From positions 62,001 to 126,000 of the forward strand of contig CAXKVR010000418.1 of assembly GCA_964058845.1 (NCBI GenBank): a stretch of DNA of 64,000 nt, in the 5' to 3' direction. The position numbers and the translations under genes were made by a program. Shown in pieces: positions 10,128 to 33,461 of this stretch (the first letter of the stretch is position 1; each line of letters begins with the position of its first letter). This DNA comes from Carex sylvatica. Its lineage: Eukaryota; Streptophyta; Magnoliopsida; Poales; Cyperaceae. The notes beneath the pieces were generated by a model. It was not told the origin of the DNA. It was given only the letters and a program-made list of their open reading frames with translations, and ran no database searches.

Positions 10128-11262
10128 TTAATTCTAATAATTGTAACTTCATTAATTATTTTTTTCTCATAATTTGAATATTGAACCCAATTAGTACAAA
10201 TGTTTTTTCATGAATTCCATGAAACTCAATTATATGCAGACAACACAAGCTAGCTCCTTCATGTTCATTAATTGTTGAAATTTGGTCAAATTTGAAGTAT
10301 ATTTTGTCCTGTTCTTGCACTCTTGCCTGTTGGCCCACTAATAGTAAATGCCCAAGTTATTTTTTCTGTTCATTTTTCTATTTCTCGTAGTAAATGCCTG
10401 CTGGCCCACTAATTGTACTCTAGCCAGCCAATCACCCCTATAATTTTTAATTTTAAGTATATATATTCAAATTTAAATAGATGTTATTGTCTTAAATAAA
10501 TTTATATAGTTGAGCTCCTCTCGTAAAATCGTAAAATATTAAACGTGTGCTTGTAACTTTTGTAACTTAGTGTTAAAATTTTACTTTGTTGTCGTGGAGG
10601 GTTGTGTTAAAATCACTACCGCCACAAATCATGCATTTTTTATTTCAGTCCCTTTCGGTCTAAATTTTTCTTGTTTTGCCCCTTCTTATAAAAAAAACCA
10701 GCACTTTTTTAAGGTATGTTTATTTGTCACGGGATTATGTGGAATGAAATTTGACGGATTCGGGAATCCACTTTTTATTTGTGGGAACCTATACTTATGT
10801 TATCTACAGGAATGATTATGTAAATGTACTGAAATAGTGTTCGGTTGTACCTCGAGAATAGTTATCGGAAACTCTAATTGGTGAAAGATATTTATGGAAA
10901 TTGTGATTAATAGGTATTAATAGTTTTGTGATCAATTTTAATAATCTAAAGTGTGATAATTAATAGATAATAAAATTTAGAAAAATTAAAATAAAATTAC
11001 ATAAGTATAATAAATTAATTTTTTTTATTTGGCCATTTGTGCAAATTATATGAATGATATTAAAATAATGACAAAAACAATATGATTTTATAACTGGTGT
11101 ATTTTAGAATTAGAAAATTAAATTAAGTAATTTGAGATTGTGATAATTTTTATAGGATTTGAATGCGAGTATAAATAAGTATAATTTATTCAACATTGAG
11201 TATGAATGCATACAATATATTTTTATTAGAAGAATTGGAAGAGAGACGAAGAGATGGTAGGG
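10128..11262. other. No gene or element recognised
   Basis: AT-rich DNA. The 81-codon frame at 10570-10815 starts at a non-ATG codon and has no recognisable domain. Confidence 0.6.
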
Positions 11263-11270
11263 AAAAAATA

Positions 11271-12600
11271 GAATTTTTTTTATAAACCATAATTAATTAA
11301 ATCAAATTTAGCAAATCAGTATGATTGATTTTTTTCTTTTTTAAAAAACATAAAAGACCGAATGGTCATTTCGGTCTCCGCATTTACTTTTTCCCATGAT
11401 CGAATTGGCCACTCGGTCTCTAAGATTTTTTTTCAGTTTTTCACAATTTTTCGTGCGGCCAATGGTGTAAGGAGGTTTTTTTTTCAGACCGAATTGGCCA
11501 TTCGGTCTTCATGTTTTTTTTTAATAAACCATAATTAATAAAAAAAAAATTGTTTAGTGTAATTAATAATTATATAATTTTTTAGTTTGCATGCAAAGTA
11601 ATTTATCGACATTTTTATGAATACCCAACTTAATGTAGAGCATTCAAAAAGCGATTACACCGGCATGTAGAGCATTCAAAAATACATAGAATCGACACAA
11701 ATTTCAATATATTTGGATTTCTCTACAATTAGTTATGAATTTTCAAAATTCAGTTTTTGAAAAAACTTTAAACATCCATAACTTTAGCTAAGAAGTCGGA
11801 TTTGCGCATATAACCACTTTTCGAAAAGGGGGGCCGAGGCGTATTTGAATATCGCCCCGAGGGCCACCCCGGGCATTCGAAGCATCACAATTTCAAAAAA
11901 AATGTCATTTAGTGCCTCAAAAATCCAGTTTACACTTTCGTTCAACGGTAGACATATAACAATCGGTAATTTGTTTAGTATAATTTAGGTTTTTGTAGTG
12001 TAATTATTAATTGTAGAATTTTTTTAGTTTGCATACAGAGTAATTTAGTTTTTTGCATGTAGTATAAATTAATTGTTGAATGATTTAATTTTCTAGTGGG
12101 ATTTAAGTTTATGTAGTGTGATTATTAATTGTATAATTTTTTAGTTTGTATGTAGAGTAATTTAGCTTTTGGCATGTAGTATAAATCAATTTTGAATGAT
12201 TTAATTTTTTTAGTGTAATTTAGATTTTTGTAGTGTAATTGTAGAATAATATAGAGTAATAGAATGAATGTTAATTTTAATTGAGTTTGCATGTCATGCA
12301 TGTTAATATTTAATTGTATTTGCATGTTAATATTTTTTTGGAGGGAGAAGAAGGGTATTTTAAAAAAAAACAATTTTCTAGATACTGAATCTCCAATTCG
12401 GTTTGGGATTATTCAGATCTTCTGTGGCCGCATCCATGAAAAAGGTAAAAAATAGGAGACCGAATTGGGGATTCGGTTCCAGAAAAAAACAAATGGGATA
12501 CCGAATTCCCAATTCGGTCTTTATGATTTTTGAAAAAAAAAAAACTAATCATACTGCTTGCTAAATTTTGATTTAATTAATTATGATTTATAAAAAAAAT
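11271..12600. mobile_element. Long-TIR element with hairpin arrays
   Basis: The TIRs start 'gaattttttttataaacc' and run about 250 bp each. They are flanked by A-rich 'aaaaaata' (11263-11270 and 12601-12609), a possible 8-9 bp duplication. Each arm has three short hairpins of the type GACCGAA...TTCGGTC: 11356-11376, 11398-11418 and 11487-11507 on the left, 12384-12402, 12459-12477 and 12500-12518 on the right. The interior holds two to three tandem units of about 117 bp (11978-12210) and no transposase. It is the same family as 15368-16157. TIR length suggests a MULE relative, but the class is an inference. Confidence 0.7.
11978..12240 (+). repeat. Tandem repeat of about 117 bp inside the TIR element
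   Basis: Units 11978-12093 and 12094-12210 share 'tttgtagtgtaattattaattg', 'agtaattta' and 'gcatgtagtataaat' in the same order. A third unit starts at 12211 and breaks off. A partial earlier unit is visible near 11555-11610. Confidence 0.7.
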
Positions 12601-12916
12601 AAAAAAATAAGTTCGTTCGATCTAATTAATTTTTCTTTAGAATTTGTAAAGATATGAAAATGAACTCAAGTCCCATTTTAAAGACCATATATCTTGGGAT
12701 ATTGCGGATGGTACCAACATTCTGGCTCTAAACCAGCCGTGGTATCCGGGATGGGGTCTGACAAGAGTCCTAACGAACCGGCAAAGGAGTACTACGGTAG
12801 CCGGGTTATTTGACATGAATTTGGGACAGTGGGACACTCACAAGGTAACAAAAATTATGGGAAACGAGGCGTTGCATGGCATACTATAGGTAACAAAGAG
12901 ACCAACTAACCACTCC

Positions 12917-13858
12917 TTGCTTACTGACAGACTAATTTGGTTACCTAGCAAAACAGGCACATACACGGCAAAACAAGGTTATGAAATGTTGAGAAAATTG
13001 CATAGAGCACCACCAACCTATGGACAGGAGATGAAAGAGGCACTCGGAAAAATCTGGGAATGGGAGGGACTCATACCAAGAGTCAGAACATTCCTCTGGC
13101 GTGATATACATGGTGGGTTGCCAACAACAGCAATGCTGCACACAAGGATATGAATGCTGGATCCAATCTGCTCGCGATGTCACATCGAAATTGAATTCTT
13201 CATGCACCTATTTTTCTTCTACCCAATGGCAAGCGCAACCTGGCTGCAAGTTCAAAATCTACCACTTGACTTCACAAGAACCCTCCTCATGATCACCAAG
13301 GTACTAGATCCAGAACAAATCATAGATTTCTGTAACTTGCTTTGGGAACTATGGAAGGCAAGGAATAGTGAGGTATTTGCAGGAAAGAAGATATCCCCAC
13401 ATGGCGTGCTCAGGCTGGTCGCAACCACAACCCCTGTACCTAAACCGGCGCAATACCAACAACAAGAAGAGGTGCCCTTACCAATCCAAATACCACCAGA
13501 CACAAGAACGGTATTGGTAGACGCCTCTTAGGACACCTCAAACAGGACTGGTATCGGGATATTAATTTTTAATGAAAACAGTACACTAAGGAATACGAGA
13601 TGCACTACCACCACTGCCTATTATCCTTTCCAAGCGAAGGCACACGCACTAATACTGGTGCTGAAACAGATTGAAACAGAGGCAGCAGATCGGTATATGG
13701 TGTTCACAGACTGTAAGACACTGGTGGAAATAGTCAACACGTCAAACTTGGATTACCTGTCATCCTGGCGGGCTGGTCTCAAGTGGAGGAGTGCATTGAC
13801 ACTTGGGCAACTATGCAACATAGAGTTACGATGGTACATGCACGAAGAGAAAGGATGA
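12917..13858 (+). pseudogene. LINE ORF2 remnant: zf-RVT and RNase H
   Basis: These pieces read in order as the zinc-knuckle region and RNase H of a LINE ORF2. The RNase H acid residues are recognisable as D in 'VDAS', E in 'QIETEAAD'/'LKQIE' context and D in 'FTDCKT'. The in-frame TAG after VDAS replaces what is usually Trp in this family. There is no start, no endonuclease and no complete reverse transcriptase in the window. Confidence 0.75.
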
Positions 13859-14167
13859 CACAACCGCATAGGTTAGCGAACTATGCAAGAAGGGGCAGCA
13901 ATGCAGGGAGAACTGGTATGAAAATATGCAGCCAATTAGGAATAGAGAAGGTCTTACCATGAAACTTCTTTACACTCAACTAGTTACATAGACTCCTTGT
14001 TCCCATCATTGTAATCAGGCTAGCATAACATAGTCTACAGTAGGAACCTTTTACTGTTTTTTCAACTAGGGTAATTTTACTGTTATTTATTTTTCAGAAT
14101 GATAAGTAGGTTTTTTTACTTTACCTAAGGACATGTACTATGTTCAGAATTTCATATTCAATAAATA

Positions 14168-14594
14168 GAGCAAAGCTAGGGTGTGATGTGCTCACCAAGA
14201 GAATTTGGTGAGCACAACTCCAAAAGTATATCAGATCGGCGTTAAACGCGAAATCCAAACCGTTAAAATCCATGTACTTAATGAGTGATGCATATACATG
14301 CAAAATTTTGAAAGTTTCGAGTTTATTTGCTACACGATCAAGTGGTCAAAGAAATAATAAAAATTGAATATATAAAACAACTTATAAATTAACTTATAAA
14401 ATATTCATTTCTTTGGTCCCTTGACCGTGTAGCAAATAAACTTGAAACTTTCAAAATTTTACATGTATGTGCATCACTCGTGAAGTACATGGATTTCAAC
14501 GGTTTGAATTTGACGTTTGAAGTCGATCCGATGAACTTTTGGAGCTGTGCTCACCAAACTCTCTTGGTGAGCACATCACACCCTAGCTTTACTC
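14168..14594. mobile_element. MULE-type foldback MITE, 9 bp target duplication
   Basis: The TIR starts GAGCAAAGCTAGGGTG on the left and GAGTAAAGCTAGGGTG on the complement of the right end. Nearly the whole 427 bp folds on itself. Perfect 9 bp duplications 'caataaata' lie at 14159-14167 and 14595-14603. It is non-coding and inserted in the 3' tail of the LINE at 12640. It is the type copy for related sequences at 3009, 7190, 21485 and, more distantly, 45565. Confidence 0.9.
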
Positions 14595-14636
14595 CAATAA
14601 ATATACCTATGGGTTTTTGTCAAAAAAAAAAGAAAC

Positions 14637-14845
14637 GAGAATAAATCTGCTGCGATTCGAATTAGATGAACAGTACCCTGAAATTCCTGCTTTTTCAAAT
14701 CTAACTGTCGATTTGTTTTGAGATGCGTGTACTGAGAAACTAGCTATTTGGAGATGCGTACACAGCAAAAAATTGAGCTGTTAGATTTGAAAAAACAAAG
14801 ATTTGAAGATACTGTTCATCTAATTCGAATCGCAGCCGATTTATT
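14637..14845. mobile_element. Foldback MITE related to the 6727 family
   Basis: The ends GAGAATAAATC (left) and GGGAATAAATC (right complement) pair, and the arms hold 'atgaacagtac' / 'atactgttcat' and 'tcaaatctaactg' / 'ttagatttga'. It sits immediately after the LINE A-tail. No clear target duplication. Confidence 0.65.
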
Positions 14846-15359
14846 CCCGTATGAAACCTACATGACAATTCTTTAGTGTCATTTGCATGGAGATTCACGC
14901 TGGTGTGGATCACAAGATGGATGGATGGTTGAGGACTTGAGGACTTGAGGTTCAAGTTATGGTCAGATTAACTGACAGAATTTGATGTCATTGTCATAGA
15001 CTCCTAGTAACATCGGGCCAATGGATGCTTTTCTTACTGTTGAAAGAAATTTTGAAAAACAAATTATCTCGTGCGTCAAAAGTCTTTTCCGTCTAAAATT
15101 TTTTTTTTTTGTATCAATTTTTTTGTTGGACTACAACAGGAATTGTAGTCTTTATTTTCACTGACCTTCTCGCACCTACTTTTGCTTTCCTGCGCGCGTA
15201 CTGGTACACTGCTACAGTGATGTACTTGCTAATACTAAATAGGCTTTTTCATGTGTTTTTTCTTTTTAGGCCAGATGTTGTTGTCAACTGTCATAGGCCT
15301 TTTTAATCTCCAATAGATAGATGAAAACTAAACCGAAATAAGCACATTATCTTTGGAAC
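14846..15359. other. No gene or element recognised
   Basis: Mixed-composition DNA without conserved frames or repeat termini. The open frame at 15109-15306 has no recognisable domain. Confidence 0.6.
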
Positions 15360-15367
15360 CGTTGGGG

Positions 15368-15576
15368 GAATTTTTTTGATAAACCATAATTAAGAAAATC
15401 ATTTTTACTAATTCAGCATGATTGTTTTTTTTTTTTAAAACCACAAAGACCGGAGGGCTCCTCCGGTCTCACTTTTTTTTCTTTTTTGGGACCGAATGGC
15501 TCCTCCAGTCCCAATTTTTATTTTTTTTTCCACTTTTTCCCGTACGGCAATCTGTGTAGCATCTCTATATTTTATG

Positions 15577-15609
<33 letters not shown>

Positions 15610-16157
15610 ATATAATATATGTATGTGTATATGTATATGTATGTGTATATGTATATGTATATGTATATATATATATATATGTGTGTGTATAATATAATCC
15701 TGAATTTTTTTTATAAACCATAATTAAGAAAATAATTTATAGTTATATACTTATATACATAAATTATATTATATTATACATATATTATATTATATTATAC
15801 ATATATTATATTATATTATACATATATTATATTATATTATACATATATTATATTATATTATATTATATTATATTAGATTATATTATTTATACATATATAT
15901 ACATATACATATATTATATTTTATTATATATACATATACATATACATAAAAATAGAGATGCTACACAGATCGCCGCACGAAAAAAAGTAAAAATAAATAA
16001 ATAAAATTTGGGACCGGAGGAGTCACCCGGTCCTAAAAAAGAAAAAAAAATGGGACTGGATGAGCCCTCCGGTCTTTGTGGTTTTTGAAAAAAATAAAAG
16101 CAATCATGCTGAATTAGTAAAAATGATTTTTTTAATTATGGTTTATCAAAAAATTCC
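15368..16157. mobile_element. Long-TIR element with hairpin arrays, 8 bp target duplication
   Basis: The ends GAATTTTTTTGATAAACC and its complement define arms of about 190 bp. 'cgttgggg' is duplicated at 15360-15367 and 16158-16165. Hairpins with GACCGGA-type stems lie at 15448-15468 (9 bp perfect stem), 15488-15512, 16011-16033 and 16054-16074. The centre is a long TA-rich microsatellite region (15575-15950). Its terminal ~100 bp match the 11271 element, yet the hairpin stems differ by paired changes. No coding capacity. Confidence 0.8.
15575..15955. repeat. TA-rich microsatellite and TATATTA-type tandem array
   Basis: (TA)n and (TG/TA)n runs to 15690, then about five tandem units of 'ttatattatattatacata' from 15764 to about 15850, then further 'tatta' iterations. 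The whole centre is close to self-complementary. Confidence 0.85.
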
Positions 16158-16165
16158 CGTTGGGG

Positions 16166-16907
16166 ACTTGGGGTGTAATGATTGAAAGTGTAGGCTTTAT
16201 TTAAAAATATAGCACACAGTTAGGTGTAGGTTTCAAGCTAATTAGAGTGATTAATTTATTTTCCGTTTTACACTTTGATGCCTTTCTTTCTTCTTTTATT
16301 CTTTGTGTGACTAGTAAGACAACGAATAAATTCCAAATTGCCTCTTGATTCTAAGAGAAAATACTAACCGGCAATTTTTTTTTCTTCCATGTTAAAACAA
16401 GGTTCTTGCGCTTAGTAAAAGTTCGAATTCTACGCAGAATGAGTCTAAGTCTGACTTTACTTGAGCCCGTCACTAGCTGAGCTAAGCTGGTTCAGCTCGT
16501 TCTGTTGTGAGGCGTATATAGACTCAATATTTTCGTCAATTTGGTGCTGCGAGAATTTTTTTTTTTTCCGCAACGAGTTTCTTTCTCTTATGAAGGGCAT
16601 AAAGAGAGACAGTGAATTTAGTTTTTTTTCTTGAGCATAGGAACAAGCCGAGTTGCGTAAAGTTTAAACTCGCTCATGACGGGTCGAGCCAGAATTGAAC
16701 AAAAAAAAATACGAATTTTTTCAGAATTTATCTCGAGTGAGTCAGAAGCTACAATTTTATTTTTGTCAGTCTTAGCGCCAAGAAACATTAACACATTTTA
16801 CTAATAATACACTTATCAGGTGATTAACACTGATGTGTTGAATAATATTTTCCCCCGACACCGAAATGTTTACTAATACCATTTCAAAAAAAATAATAAA
16901 CCAAAAC
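16166..16907. other. No gene recognised
   Basis: The segment 16395-16740 contains words such as 'gctgagctaagctggttcagctcg' and 'cgggtcgagcc', reminiscent of a plant interspersed repeat, but its ends and class cannot be set. Confidence 0.4.
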
Positions 16908-21484: not shown

Positions 21485-22491
21485 GAGCAAAGCTAGGGTG
21501 TGATGTGCTCACCAAATTGGTTTTGTGAGCACAACTCTAAAAGTATATCGGATTGGCTTTAAACGATAAATCCAAATCGTTGAAATCCATGTACTTCATG
21601 AGTGATGCATGTATATGTAAAATTTTGAAAGTTTTGAATTCATTTGCTATAAGTAGTGGTTTGCAAATACCCATCGGGGGCAGACCCGACCTGTACCCGC
21701 CCGTGCTCGGTACCCGGGTTACCCGTGCCCGAGCCCGGGTATGGGTCGGGTAAACGGGTACACGGGTACGGGTAAAAAACTGGTAGGGTACGATTATTTG
21801 GTTCAAAACCCGAGCAAACCCGGTCCGATTTACGCCCGACCCGACCCGACCCGACCGACCCGACCCGGACCCGTACCCGACCTGGCCCGACCCGGACCCG
21901 ACCCCGAACCCGTACCCGAACCCGTTAAAAAATTCAAAAAAATTCAAAAAAATTCAAATTTTTTTGAAATTTCGAATTTTCCGCCTTAAAAAACAGGAAA
22001 AAAAAAAAAAAAAAACGGGTACCCGACCCGGACCGCCATACCCGTGCCGGGTACCACGGGCACGGGTATAACTCGGGTAGGGTACGGGTTTTGAAAAATA
22101 TACCCGAGTATACCCGACCCGAGATACCCGTATACCCGACCTACCCGTACCCGACCCAAACCCGTACCCGACCCCGGGTACGCCCGGTCCGCCCGAACCC
22201 GGTCCGAGAGCACTACACTAGCTATAAGGTCAAGCGGTCAAAGAAATATTGAAAAAATAATACATAAAACAACTTATAAAACAACTTATATAAAAGATTA
22301 TTCATTTCTTTGACCGCTTGAACTTGTACCAAATGAATTCGAAACTTTAAAAATTTTACATATACATGCATCACTCATGAAGTACATGGATTTCAACGGT
22401 TTGGATTTATCGTTTGAAACCAATCCGATATGCTTTTGGAGTTGTGCTCACCAAACCCACTTGGTGAGCACATCACACCCTAGCTTTGATC
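21485..22491. mobile_element. MULE-type foldback MITE split by a hAT-like element
   Basis: The ends GAGCAAAGCTAGGGTG and GATCAAAGCTAGGGTG match the 14168 family. The flanks 'aaaacatac' (21476-21484) and 'aaaacatat' (22492-22500) form an 8-of-9 duplication. The left arm runs to 21653 and resumes at 22221; between them lies the element at 21654-22220. Confidence 0.85.
21654..22220. mobile_element. hAT-like element made of ACCCG(A/T) arrays
   Basis: The ends TAGTGGTTTGC and TAGTGTAGTGC (right complement) are flanked by a perfect 8 bp duplication 'gctataag' (21646-21653 and 22221-22228), the hAT size. Almost the whole 567 bp consists of iterated 'acccg', 'gacccg', 'tacccg' in the left part and the complement 'cgggta' in both parts, with a short A/T-rich centre. 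There is no transposase; the Gly/Ser- and Pro-rich open frames over it are composition artefacts. Confidence 0.85.
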
Positions 22492-23783
22492 AAAACATAT
22501 GACATATGCTGTCATATTGCAGACATTTTTATTTTTACCCAATTATTAAAATATTTTAATAAAAATAACTAGGATTTGATCAAAATTTTAAAAATGCCCA
22601 AAACGTGAAAAAAATCTACGGCCCCAAATTTTTAGTCGGAACCGCGAAAAAAATCCGCGGCCCAGTGGATTTTTTTTTTTGCACTATTAAAGGCTGCCGA
22701 TTTTTGTTTAATTAGACGACCTTTCATATTTTTTTCTAATTAATTTTAAAGTGAAACTAAAATTTTGAGATATAATCAAACTATGAATTTAATGTGTTAA
22801 GAATTTGAATCTAAAATATAAATTCTATAAATTAATAGTAATTATTCGAGTAGTTCGTGAATTTAAAAATTCGTTAAAAGTTCCGTTGAACCATTTAGAA
22901 AATAAATTAAAATTTAATTTGTATGAATAAATAAGTAATTAAATTTTAAATAAGAGTATAATTATACGAAGTTATTCGTATAAATAAATTAGGAAATTTA
23001 TAAAATTAGTTCATTTCGGAATTTACAAAACTAGTTCATTCCGGAATTTACAATCTGTTTCTGCCAGGAACATAACCTGTTTTAGCAGTTTGGGCAATTT
23101 TTGAGATGTGATATCTCACGATCTGTATGGAGATTTTGTATGAAACTTCACAGTCTTGTTCTACGATGTTAAGACTGTATGTCGGTCAATTTTCATAATT
23201 TTTGAAAATATTTTGTTATGTTAACCAGAGGTGCAAATTTGGGCTCAGAAACTGTTAGTCATAGTCTTAGTCTTAGTCTTAGCCTTATGCGTCTCTAGAT
23301 CAAACTCTTTTTTTTTTAAATCATGGCCATAGAAATTATCTACAAAAACATAATTAGATATTTCATACCAAAAATATTATTTTATCTCTACACATCTTGG
23401 ACAGTCCTTTTTATTTCTTCCAGTCCAGCGACATTTATTTTTCTTGTCCTCGTTCTTTTCTCGATTGTTACTGTCAATCCTTCTCATCTACAATTTAATT
23501 AAAAAAATAATAATTAAAAAAAACTGCGACATAATAAAATACAAATAAAGTTTACTCAAATCTAATTGAATAAGTTCATACAAATCTCAAAATTAAACTG
23601 TGAGCTGTCAACACATACAAATAAAGTTTATACAAACCTCAAAATGAAAATTGTTCACAAAATAAACTTCATCTAATTAAATAAGTTCTCAACACATTGA
23701 AATAGATCGCAAGTTAATTTCTACGACTCAGCCTAAAATGCAATTCCATTAACCGACCAGATCCCCATGATGATGTGTTCCTT

Positions 23784-24425: not shown

Positions 24426-24949
24426 AAGATAAAAAAAAATGCCTATTTATAATGCAAAAAAACTAACAAAAAAAAAAGCCGGGCCGAGAAAAAATTCTGC
24501 AATTCCGAATTTTTATTCGGGGCCATAGATTTTTTCCACGTTTTGGGTATTTTTAAAATTTTGATCAGATCCTGGTTATTTTTATTAAAATATTTAAAAA
24601 AATGGATAAAAATAAAAATGTCAGGTCATATTGTATTGCAAACCTTTCAAATTTTCAAAATAATAATAATATTAATTAAAGATTTGGAGTCATGAACCGG
24701 ACTAGAAATTAAATTAAAATGGAGGTAAAAATTATATAATCAAACTTTCATTTCATGCAAAAAAAGTAATGTTAAGGCACGCATAAAAACATAAAATTTA
24801 ACTATGGCAGTCGAGTTCAAAGTAGCATAATGTTCACATTTCGAGGAAAATAATGTCGGTAAAAAATGTGTTCTAGTAAATTTGTGTGCGTATTATTTAT
24901 CGTATCTTGTTGTTTTAACACAATCAAATTATTGAGTTTTTGGATAAGA

Positions 24950-31665: not shown

Positions 31666-33461
31666 CTTGATCAGCTCGTATCGTCACGTGTTTAGATCCC
31701 TACACGATCCCATTTAATATCGTGCTATGAAAGATATGCGGCCATTTTTATTAATACCCCAAAAAAAAAAATTAACAATACCCCTGTGTTTTATTTTTTT
31801 TATTAATACCCCGACCGCCAGACCCACGGGCGGCTCATATATTGAAGGAAACTGCCAGGCCAACGGGCGGTTCTCTCCCTAAGCAAACCGCCGCCCCGCC
31901 CCCCACGGGCGGTCCGCTATTGATATGTTTTCCCCACCCGTGAGCCCTCCCTCCCTGCCTCTCATCTGCCTCAATCCGAACCCACCTCCTCTCTCTGCCT
32001 CAGTCCGAACCAGAAAAAGAAAAAAAATTGCGTCGCCGCCCCTGTCTCCACCGCCGCCACTACTGCTCTGCTCCTCTCCCTCTCGTTCTCTCCTTTCCCT
32101 CGCTCACTTTCTCTCACGCTCGGTGCCACCACTGCATTGAGCACCGTCACGGCCGCTACACCGAGCACCGCCACTGTACCAAGCTTCTCTTGAATGTAAG
32201 TTTTTTCGATTCGATTAGTTCAATTTAGGGTTAGAGTTAGGGTTAGGGTTATGATTAGTGACTCGATAATGGTTTAATTAGTTGAATTGGTTGAATTGTG
32301 ACTCGATAATGGTTGAATTAGTTGAATTAGAGTTGTTTCGAATTTGTTGAATTGCTCGAATTAGTTGAATTGCTTGAATTGCTTGAATTGCTTGAATTGC
32401 TTGAATTGTTCGAATTAGGTGCTTTATCGAATTTCTTGGATTGGAGATTATTAATAAAAAAATTATTATGGTAGAATTGCTTAAATTTTTTGAATGTGAT
32501 ATAGTTCAATTAGGGTTTATGGTTCTGAATTGTGAATTGCTTAAAAATTTAGGGTTTATAGTTCCCTTCTTTGAATTTAGGATTTATGGTTCAATTTAGA
32601 ATTATTATGGTTCAATTGTTTGATTTGTTTAAAAATTTAAAGTTAGAGTTTATGGTTTACAAAATTTAGGGTTGATGATTTTTTGAAGTTAGTTGACGAA
32701 AGACATGTATATATATTAATACAAATTAATTTTAAGTAAAAATAAATTATTTTGAAGTATATCAAAATTTGTTTAAAAATTGCATTTTTTTTTTCAAGTA
32801 AATTGCATGTTTGTTGATTACAGTAGATTTTTGTTTTTTTTGCAAATTTTCTATTTTTCTAAAATTTAATAGTAAATAAAATTTAATATTGAATAGAATT
32901 TAATGGTGAATAAAATTTAGTAGTAAATAAAATTAATTTGTTTATAAAATAGTCCCTGCCTAGGGACCTCTTTGTAACAGGACGTAAAAAGTTGTATGAT
33001 AAGTATTTTTTAATTGTAATTTCATAGAATTACTATTTACAAAATGTATAAAACTTAAGTAATATTTTCAAACATAAATTTGAATAAAAGAAATGATTAT
33101 TTTGAAGTTTATTTGATAAATTGTGAGCACAGATAGTTATTTGGTAATTGGTTATAATTAAAATTCGATTAAAATTCATGTGTTTGGATTATTGGTTAGA
33201 TATATATTTTTTAAGTGTGGTGAGATGAATGTGTGAGATTTTTTTTTTTTCATGTGTATTGAAAGATAATTTATGTTGTTAATTTAGTAATTGTCATGTT
33301 AAGTGTTAGTTGTATCATGTATTGTTATTGTGATAATAAAAATATGTGTAATTAGTATATTTTGATTAATAATTATTGTTAATTTATAATTATATTTTTT
33401 TCTATTTTATTATTAATAATAAATTTTGTGATTGATTATATTTTTTTTTTTAAATGTAGTA

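What the first reader, a model, noticed from the sequence alone, without database searches (positions are those of the whole stretch)
11271..16157. TIR hairpin arrays whose stems differ between elements but stay self-complementary
Seen: two related long-TIR elements (11271-12600, 15368-16157) each carry 2-3 short hairpins per arm at corresponding places. In the first the stem is GACCGAA/TTCGGTC with loops such as TGGTCAT, TTGGCCA or CCC. In the second it is GACCGGA/TCCGGTC, extended to a 9 bp perfect stem at 15448-15468. Both strands of the stem changed together, while ACCG...CGGT stayed. The unrelated-sequence MULE at 31740 has ACCGCC/GGCGGT in its TIRs, and the MULE at 22520 has CCGCG/CGCGG on one side and CCGAA/TTCGG on the other. 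Inference: paired change suggests selection on a folded or dyad structure, for example a co-evolving transposase dyad site or a hairpin needed in transposition or silencing escape. I know of no named description of this for plant MULE-like elements.
Basis: partly seen in the sequence, partly recalled or inferred. Interest (0 to 1): 0.75.

Follow-up and report, generated by a model that had tools for sequence, protein, structure and literature searches.

The report
Paired binding-site arrays in plant transposon ends
The repeated small palindromes at the ends of these plant jumping genes are real and follow a strict 21- or 23-letter layout found hundreds of times in this genome; they look like paired docking sites for the jumping gene's own enzyme, and their matching changes do not closely follow changes in that enzyme.

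Summary
The hairpins are real. E1 (11271-~12601) and E2 (15368-16156, 9-bp target duplication CCGTTGGGG) are related MULEs whose arms carry two or three 21-bp dyads, GACCGRA-N7-TYCGGTC, usually about 42 bp apart. Genome-wide, GACCG..CGGTC pairs pile up at 21 bp (310 vs 7 control) and 23 bp (353 vs 39). Relatives with the same arm ends encode a MuDR-type transposase (PF10551 + PF03108).

In a tree-based test of 65 arms, two-sided changes in dyad 1 are not in excess (11 vs 8.5, P=0.22; a slid control gives 14). One-sided changes are many; at half-site C/G positions of dyad 1, 41 of 42 are C-to-T/G-to-A. The stem variant does not closely follow the transposase: one clade sits beside GGA, GAA and GTG dyads, and GGA-type elements carry a GAA-type dyad ~265 bp upstream of the transposase start. 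The spacer occurs in both orientations, a template-switching signature.

Best reading: paired half-sites for the transposase in a fixed register, inner symmetry kept mostly by palindrome homogenisation. New variant of a known kind.

The parts
11271..12601 (.). E1: non-autonomous MULE with long TIRs; 8-bp duplication AAAAAATA at 11263-11270 / 12602-12609 (low complexity, so the right end is uncertain by 1-2 bases)
   Evidence: (related copies at ten places)
11271..11346 (+). E1 left terminal block GAATTTTTTTTATAAACCATAATTAA...
   Evidence: I5, 84% complementary to the right end; I6, 81%, to the E2 right end
11356..11376 (.). E1 left dyad 1, GACCGAATGGTCATTTCGGTC
11398..11418 (.). E1 left dyad 2, GATCGAATTGGCCACTCGGTC (decayed), 42 bp from dyad 1
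11487..11507 (.). E1 left dyad 3, GACCGAATTGGCCATTCGGTC
   Evidence: (C418:73487)
12458..12478 (.). E1 right dyad 2 (read inward AACCGAATCCCCAATTCGGTC)
12499..12519 (.). E1 right dyad 1 (read inward GACCGAATTGGGAATTCGGTA)
15359..15367 (.). E2 target-site duplication CCGTTGGGG (left)
15368..16156 (.). E2: non-autonomous MULE with long TIRs, related to E1
   Evidence: (I2, I4)
15448..15468 (.). E2 left dyad 1, GACCGGAGGGCTCCTCCGGTC, 9-bp stem
15490..15510 (.). E2 left dyad 2, GACCGAATGGCTCCTCCAGTC (halves of mixed type, pair 6/16 mismatched)
15702..15741 (+). extra internal copy of the E2 terminal 40 bp, also seen inside many fetched E2 copies
   Evidence: (I14)
16012..16032 (.). E2 right dyad 2 (read inward GACCGGGTGACTCCTCCGGTC)
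   Evidence: C418:78012
16054..16074 (.). E2 right dyad 1 (read inward GACCGGAGGGCTCATCCAGTC)
16157..16165 (.). E2 target-site duplication CCGTTGGGG (right)
31813..31835 (.). 23-bp dyad of the 31740 MULE, GACCGCCAGACCCACGGGCGGCT
31850..31872 (.). second 23-bp dyad of the 31740 MULE, 37 bp from the first
22622..22660 (.). two adjacent dyads in the left arm of the 22520 MULE (counterparts of both lie in the right arm near 24485-24522)

Best explanation
Each hairpin is a dyad of two half-sites (outer core ACCG, fuller form GACCGRA) in inverted orientation, at a fixed 21-bp or 23-bp register. Most likely two protomers of the element's own MuDR-type transposase dock there through their N-terminal zinc DNA-binding domain. 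Dyads come in pairs (about 42 bp apart in the 21-bp families, about 35-39 in the 23-bp families), so each arm would load several protomers, and a further dyad ~265 bp before the transposase start may let the enzyme act on its own promoter. Shown: the geometry, its genome-wide recurrence, the conservation of half-sites over spacer (clear in dyad 1), and the link to copies that encode the transposase. Inferred: that the bound protein is this transposase, that it binds as a dimer, and the promoter role. The matching of inner bases (pairs 6-10) is real between classes but is best explained by repeated homogenisation and flipping of short palindromes (template switching) around a fixed ACCG core, not by a changing transposase specificity or a needed hairpin.
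Confidence: 0.57

Rival explanations
1. The stems are selected as folded or fully symmetric DNA: a cruciform or single-strand hairpin, or dyad symmetry including the inner bases, is itself recognised in transposition, so inner pairs are kept complementary whatever their sequence.
For: At least five classes with quite different inner bases have stems of 8-10 bp in some members (GACCGGACGG.., GACCGGAGGG.., GACCGTGGG.., GACCGAGAG.., GACCGAAAT..). Among 19 distinct classes, pairs 6/16 and 8/14 exceed shuffles (7 and 2 of 5000 reach them). In 23-mers, central pairs 10/14 and 11/13 are above expectation (40 vs 26.1, 33 vs 23.8 of 100).
Against: Mixed dyads with a mismatch at 6/16 are common, and the same mixed dyad stands on opposite strands at C1:294370 and C1:295137; 23-mer pairs 8/16 and 9/15 are not above expectation; dyad 1 shows no excess of two-sided changes on the tree (11 vs 8.5), and a slid control reaches 14.
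Confidence: 0.17
2. Co-evolution: each transposase lineage has its own half-site, and both halves change when the DNA-binding domain changes.
For: The strongly diverged transposase of the 23-bp family (38% identical over 389 residues) goes with GACCGCC half-sites, while the C701/C120 clade goes with GACCGGA-type sites.
Against: Within one clade (82-99% identity at the places named) neighbours include GGA (C120, C36, C157, C398), GAA (C1:628554, C191:132621, C76:273319) and GTG (C180, C128) dyads, some of them mixed within one neighbourhood, and GAA-type dyads sit before the gene in GGA-type elements. Ownership of a neighbouring dyad was judged by position in most of these.
Confidence: 0.12
3. 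The dyads are sites for a host DNA-binding protein (transcription factor or silencing factor) that controls the promoter in the TIR, not for the transposase.
For: One dyad lies at a nearly fixed distance before the transposase frame (255-271 bp in 7 of 8 listed copies, 645 in one); MULE TIRs are stated to hold promoters as well as transposase sites (PMC3310237, abstract passage).
Against: Short non-autonomous copies, such as C649 (about 316 bp matched), keep both dyads; two MULE groups with unrelated arm sequence share the ACCG core.
Confidence: 0.12
4. Chance or low-complexity artefact.
For: For E2 arms alone, about 1 shuffle in 40 gives one such stem.
Against: Genome-wide counts at 21 and 23 bp and the fixed pair spacing.
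Confidence: 0.02

Closest known systems
Maize MuDR/Mu TIRs with the MURA binding site
   Same: Long TIRs holding a transposase site; MuDR-type transposase domain (PF03108) found here
   Different: MURA is reported to bind a conserved ~32-bp motif (PMC3310237, passage); whether that motif is a dyad was not seen in the passage and was not tested here. Here the units are short dyads, repeated and paired
Muta1 MULE of Aedes aegypti
   Same: MULE with 8-9 bp TSDs and TIRs built of repeated short subterminal units; called a type 2 Foldback element (PMC5225508, passages)
   Different: Muta1 has a 10-bp palindromic terminal motif plus 9 copies of a 12-bp tandem repeat with 3-4 bp spacers; here the subterminal units are 21/23-bp dyads about 35-42 bp apart
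Galileo (P superfamily) TIRs with multiple THAP sites
   Same: Several transposase sites per long TIR, the first about 70 bp from the end (PMC3688188, abstract and passages); here dyad 1 starts about 80 bp from the end
   Different: Other superfamily and other DNA-binding domain; the further sites there lie in long direct repeats
VANDAL/VANC anti-silencing motifs
   Same: Short repeated motif read by an element-encoded protein, with motif change between families (PMC5735166, passages)
   Different: [quoted passage not shown] here inverted pairs inside TIRs
Template-switch evolution of short inverted repeats
   Same: Arm homogenisation and spacer inversion (PMC8604942, passages); compensatory changes in one event (PMC8794818, abstract)
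   Different: Studied there in yeast coding genes and RNA genes, not in transposon ends

Membership tests
Mutator-like elements (MULE) | Target-site duplication of 8-9 bp or a little more (range recalled) | tested here: met
   E2 CCGTTGGGG on both sides; E1 AAAAAATA, low complexity
Mutator-like elements (MULE) | Long terminal inverted repeats (TIR-MULE type) | tested here: met
   E2 arms I4 93% and I2 86% complementary; E1 arms I5 84%
Mutator-like elements (MULE) | MULE transposase in the autonomous partner | tested here: met
   PF10551 and PF03108 above cut-off in C701, C120 and C56 frames; related arm ends in C120 and C701. E1/E2 themselves are non-autonomous and their partner is inferred
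Mutator-like elements (MULE) | Transposition by that transposase | not testable with these tools
   no experiment
WRKY-GCM1 type DNA-binding domain | C-x4-C ... H-x-C zinc site on a beta sheet | tested here: met
   [not shown]
Foldback-type MULE (Muta1-like) | TIR made of tandem direct repeats | tested here: inconclusive
   units are near-palindromes; of 31 neighbouring listed pairs 22 are inverted and 9 direct
VANDAL/VANC target arrays | YAGTATTAY or AGTTGT(C/A)C motif clusters bound by VANC | not tested
   motif not searched
Selected RNA/DNA hairpin | Compensatory change beyond phylogeny | tested here: inconclusive
   dyad 1: 11 vs null 8.5, P 0.22, slid control up to 14; dyad 2: 22 vs 10, 0 of 2000 null runs reach it, but only 7 of the 22 end in a pair and a slid control gives 20; class-level test positive
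Known structured RNA | Rfam match | tested here: not met
   0 matches in 11000-16500 at gathering score

The most novel reading that the evidence does not exclude
Plant MULE transposases read a palindrome by its symmetry and register as well as its ACCG core: inner bases may be anything as long as the two halves match, so template switching supplies ready-made new valid sites and lets transposon ends diversify without breaking. This would be a sequence-tolerant, symmetry-keeping recognition code, with the same dyad used again as an autoregulatory promoter site.
Probability: 0.15. Interest if true: 0.8.

Novelty: new variant of a known kind. Interest (0 to 1): 0.5.

Why it matters
How MULE transposases recognise their long, fast-changing ends is poorly known; the one plant site seen in the papers read here is the ~32-bp MURA motif. 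A strict 21/23-bp dyad code present at several hundred places, tied to frames that encode the transposase, gives a short list of testable sites and a way to pair non-autonomous families with their enzymes. It is also a warning: paired changes in DNA palindromes can come from template switching and are not by themselves proof of selection for a fold.

Tried and rejected
Helical phasing as a general rule: 42 bp fits four turns, but the 23-bp families use about 35, 37 or 39 bp, so it was dropped. The gap scan CGGTC-N5-25-GACCG gave 545 vs 317 control; the 50 listed gaps spread from 5 to 25, with 22 at 17-20 and 13 at 11-13, only weak support for fixed dyad-dyad spacing. The tree-aware test on E1/E2 arms gave no excess in dyad 1, and sliding the partner by one column gave 14 co-changes, more than the observed 11; its tree rests on flank columns only (about 78 usable) and is weak. 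Rfam: no match. PDB by sequence: nothing relevant. Paper searches for dyads or hairpins in MULE TIRs listed no title or abstract start that describes this; they cover only the open library, and most listed papers were not opened. No other plant genome was searchable here, so spread beyond this host is untested. No VANC or MURA-motif search was made.

Rows dropped: of 67 arms, 65 had a scored dyad 1 and 58 a dyad 2, 57 both. Pattern listings show 100 of 142, 100 of 139 and 29 of 29 of the 21-mers, and 100 of 353 of the 23-mers.
Full report
WHAT IS THERE. The window lies in a 64-Mb, 950-contig assembly. The nearest transposase relatives with a species name are from Carex and Rhynchospora, so the host is probably a sedge or a near relative; that is inference. 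E1 and E2 are related non-autonomous MULEs: their outermost ~70 bp align to each other (I6 81% and I7 76%), E2 has a perfect 9-bp duplication CCGTTGGGG (15359-15367, 16157-16165) and E1 an 8-bp AAAAAATA. Searches give related copies at ten (E1) and more than 30 (E2) places. From the fetched copies 67 arms were taken. The arms begin with variants of GAATTTTTTT.ATAAACCATAATTAA, run to a T-rich tract, and then carry a 21-bp dyad at about position 80 (scored in 65 of 67) and usually a second one (58 of 67; both in 57). The distance between them is 42 bp in 27 of 57 arms and 40-44 in 45 of 57; the rest are 35-39 (6) or 50-66 (6).

IS IT MORE THAN CHANCE? In the four arms of the window, E1 stems are far above dinucleotide shuffles (0 and 1 of 2000 reach the count), E2 stems only mildly (50 and 53 of 2000). 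The genome settles it. GACCG-N11-CGGTC (21 bp) occurs 310 times (142 with A at position 6, 139 with G, 29 with C or T) against 7 for the reversed control; GACCG-N13-CGGTC (23 bp) 353 times against 39; all spacers of 5-14 together 882 against 183. Of 55 neighbouring listed 21-mers under 250 bp apart, 31 lie 39-43 bp apart; of these 18 are in the order -+, 6 ++, 4 +-, 3 --.

WHAT IS CONSERVED. On a tree from the flanks, dyad 1 A/T half-site columns change 0.5 times per column, the flank 3.35 and the spacer 10.7. In the six C/G half-site columns 41 of 42 changes are C-to-T or G-to-A and one is a transversion; in the spacer 31 of 75 are transversions. Dyad 2 is looser (4.75 per A/T half-site column; 34 of 39 C/G changes decay-type). 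For dyad 1 this is the picture of half-sites kept by the source and then decaying, probably by loss of methylated cytosine, around a freely varying spacer.

PAIRED CHANGE. Between classes the pairing is real. In the 229 listed 21-mers, pair 6/16 is complementary in 183 (91.5 expected from composition), 7/15 in 196 (163.6), 8/14 in 135 (65.1), 9/13 in 158 (114.1), 10/12 in 126 (108.8). Among 19 classes whose left halves differ by at least two bases, 50 cells pair against 28.2 in shuffles, 0 of 5000 reaching it; pairs 6/16 and 8/14 carry it, and 7/15 shows nothing (1524 of 5000). Relatedness is only partly removed by this, and 10 of the 19 classes are single sites. In the 100 listed 23-mers, pairs 8/16 and 9/15 are at expectation (41 vs 39.7, 29 vs 30.8), 10/14 and 11/13 above it (40 vs 26.1, 33 vs 23.8). 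Inside the E1/E2 family, a branch-based test finds 11 two-sided changes in dyad 1 against a null of 8.5 (P 0.22), 8 of them ending in a pair; sliding the partner by one column gives 14. The A:T to G:C change at 6/16 happened twice (the E2 ancestor and one arm of a third type). In dyad 2 there are 22 against 10 (0 of 2000 null runs), but only 7 end in a pair, and slid controls reach 20. Much of this excess is flips: in 46 E2 arms the spacers of dyads 1 and 2 are oriented RR in 14, FR in 12, RF in 8, with one undetermined or no dyad 2 scored in 12; the flipped dyad 2 GACCGGAGGAGCCACCCGGTC is the exact reverse complement of the common form, and in C803 and C284b the two arms differ. Template switching between short inverted repeats gives both arm homogenisation and spacer inversion (PMC8604942, abstract and passages) and can fix pairing in one event (PMC8794818, abstract). 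I take it as the main source of the matched inner changes. Mixed dyads, for example GACCGGACGGACCGTTCGGTC at C1:294370 (+) and C1:295137 (-), show that a mismatch at 6/16 did not stop such elements from spreading, if those two sites are, as their spacing and opposite strands suggest, the two arms of one element.

DOES THE STEM TRACK THE ENZYME? Coarsely yes: the 21-bp and 23-bp families have clearly different enzymes. Finely no: members of the C701 clade lie next to GGA dyads (C120, C36, C157, C398, and mixed ones at C336 and C387), GAA dyads (C1:628554, C191:132621, C76:273319) and GTG dyads (C180, C128). Ownership is by position for most of them, and several neighbourhoods hold more than one type. 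The sequence GACCGAATTAGGGATTCGGTC is listed at 8 places (C1, C6, C36, C96, C120, C173, C191, C398; 100 of 142 sites listed) and all 8 lie upstream of a frame of this clade, 255-271 bp from the start codon in 7 and 645 in one (start codons worked out from residue offsets where the match does not reach residue 1). In C120 the sequence shows it directly: dyad at L097 690-710, start codon at 978. So one element carries GGA-type dyads in its right end and a GAA-type dyad before its gene; position 6 is best read as a purine that the protein tolerates either way.

MECHANISM. I propose that the transposase docks as pairs on these dyads, several pairs per arm, to assemble the transposition complex, and possibly on the upstream dyad to control its own gene. 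The closest measured precedent among the papers read is Galileo, with several THAP sites in a long TIR and the first about 70 bp from the end (PMC3688188, abstract and passages); the nearest MULE anatomy is Muta1 (PMC5225508, passages). Binding, dimerisation and promoter action are inferred. The 35-39 bp spacing in 23-bp families and the preference for inverted neighbouring dyads remain unexplained.

VERDICT. A real, strict and widespread dyad architecture in plant MULE ends; the covariation is genuine between classes but does not show fine co-evolution with the transposase and does not require folding.

Noticed in passing
window 15702-15741: An extra internal copy of the E2 terminal 40 bp, present inside many of the fetched E2 copies: a third, partial TIR.
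   Followed up: partly
L097 690-710 (C120:106189-106209) and 7 other listed places: One dyad, GACCGAATTAGGGATTCGGTC, identical at 8 listed places, sits 255-271 bp (once 645) before the transposase start; candidate autoregulatory site.
   Followed up: partly
window 14168-14594 and 14635-14850: Two further inverted-repeat elements (188-bp arms, 88% complementary; 84-bp arms, 82%) between E1 and E2; the first resembles the repeat at 22201-22490 by eye.
   Followed up: no
window 11647-11979 (E1 positions 377-709): Internal part of E1 is a separate repeat with more than 25 hits of 80-85% identity, so E1 holds or captured another family.
   Followed up: no
C64:2170, 4467, 6764: The same dyad three times at a period of exactly 2297 bp: tandem duplication or assembly effect.
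   Followed up: no
31 neighbouring listed 21-mer pairs: Paired dyads are preferentially in the order -+ (18 of 31), that is, inverted relative to one another.
   Followed up: no
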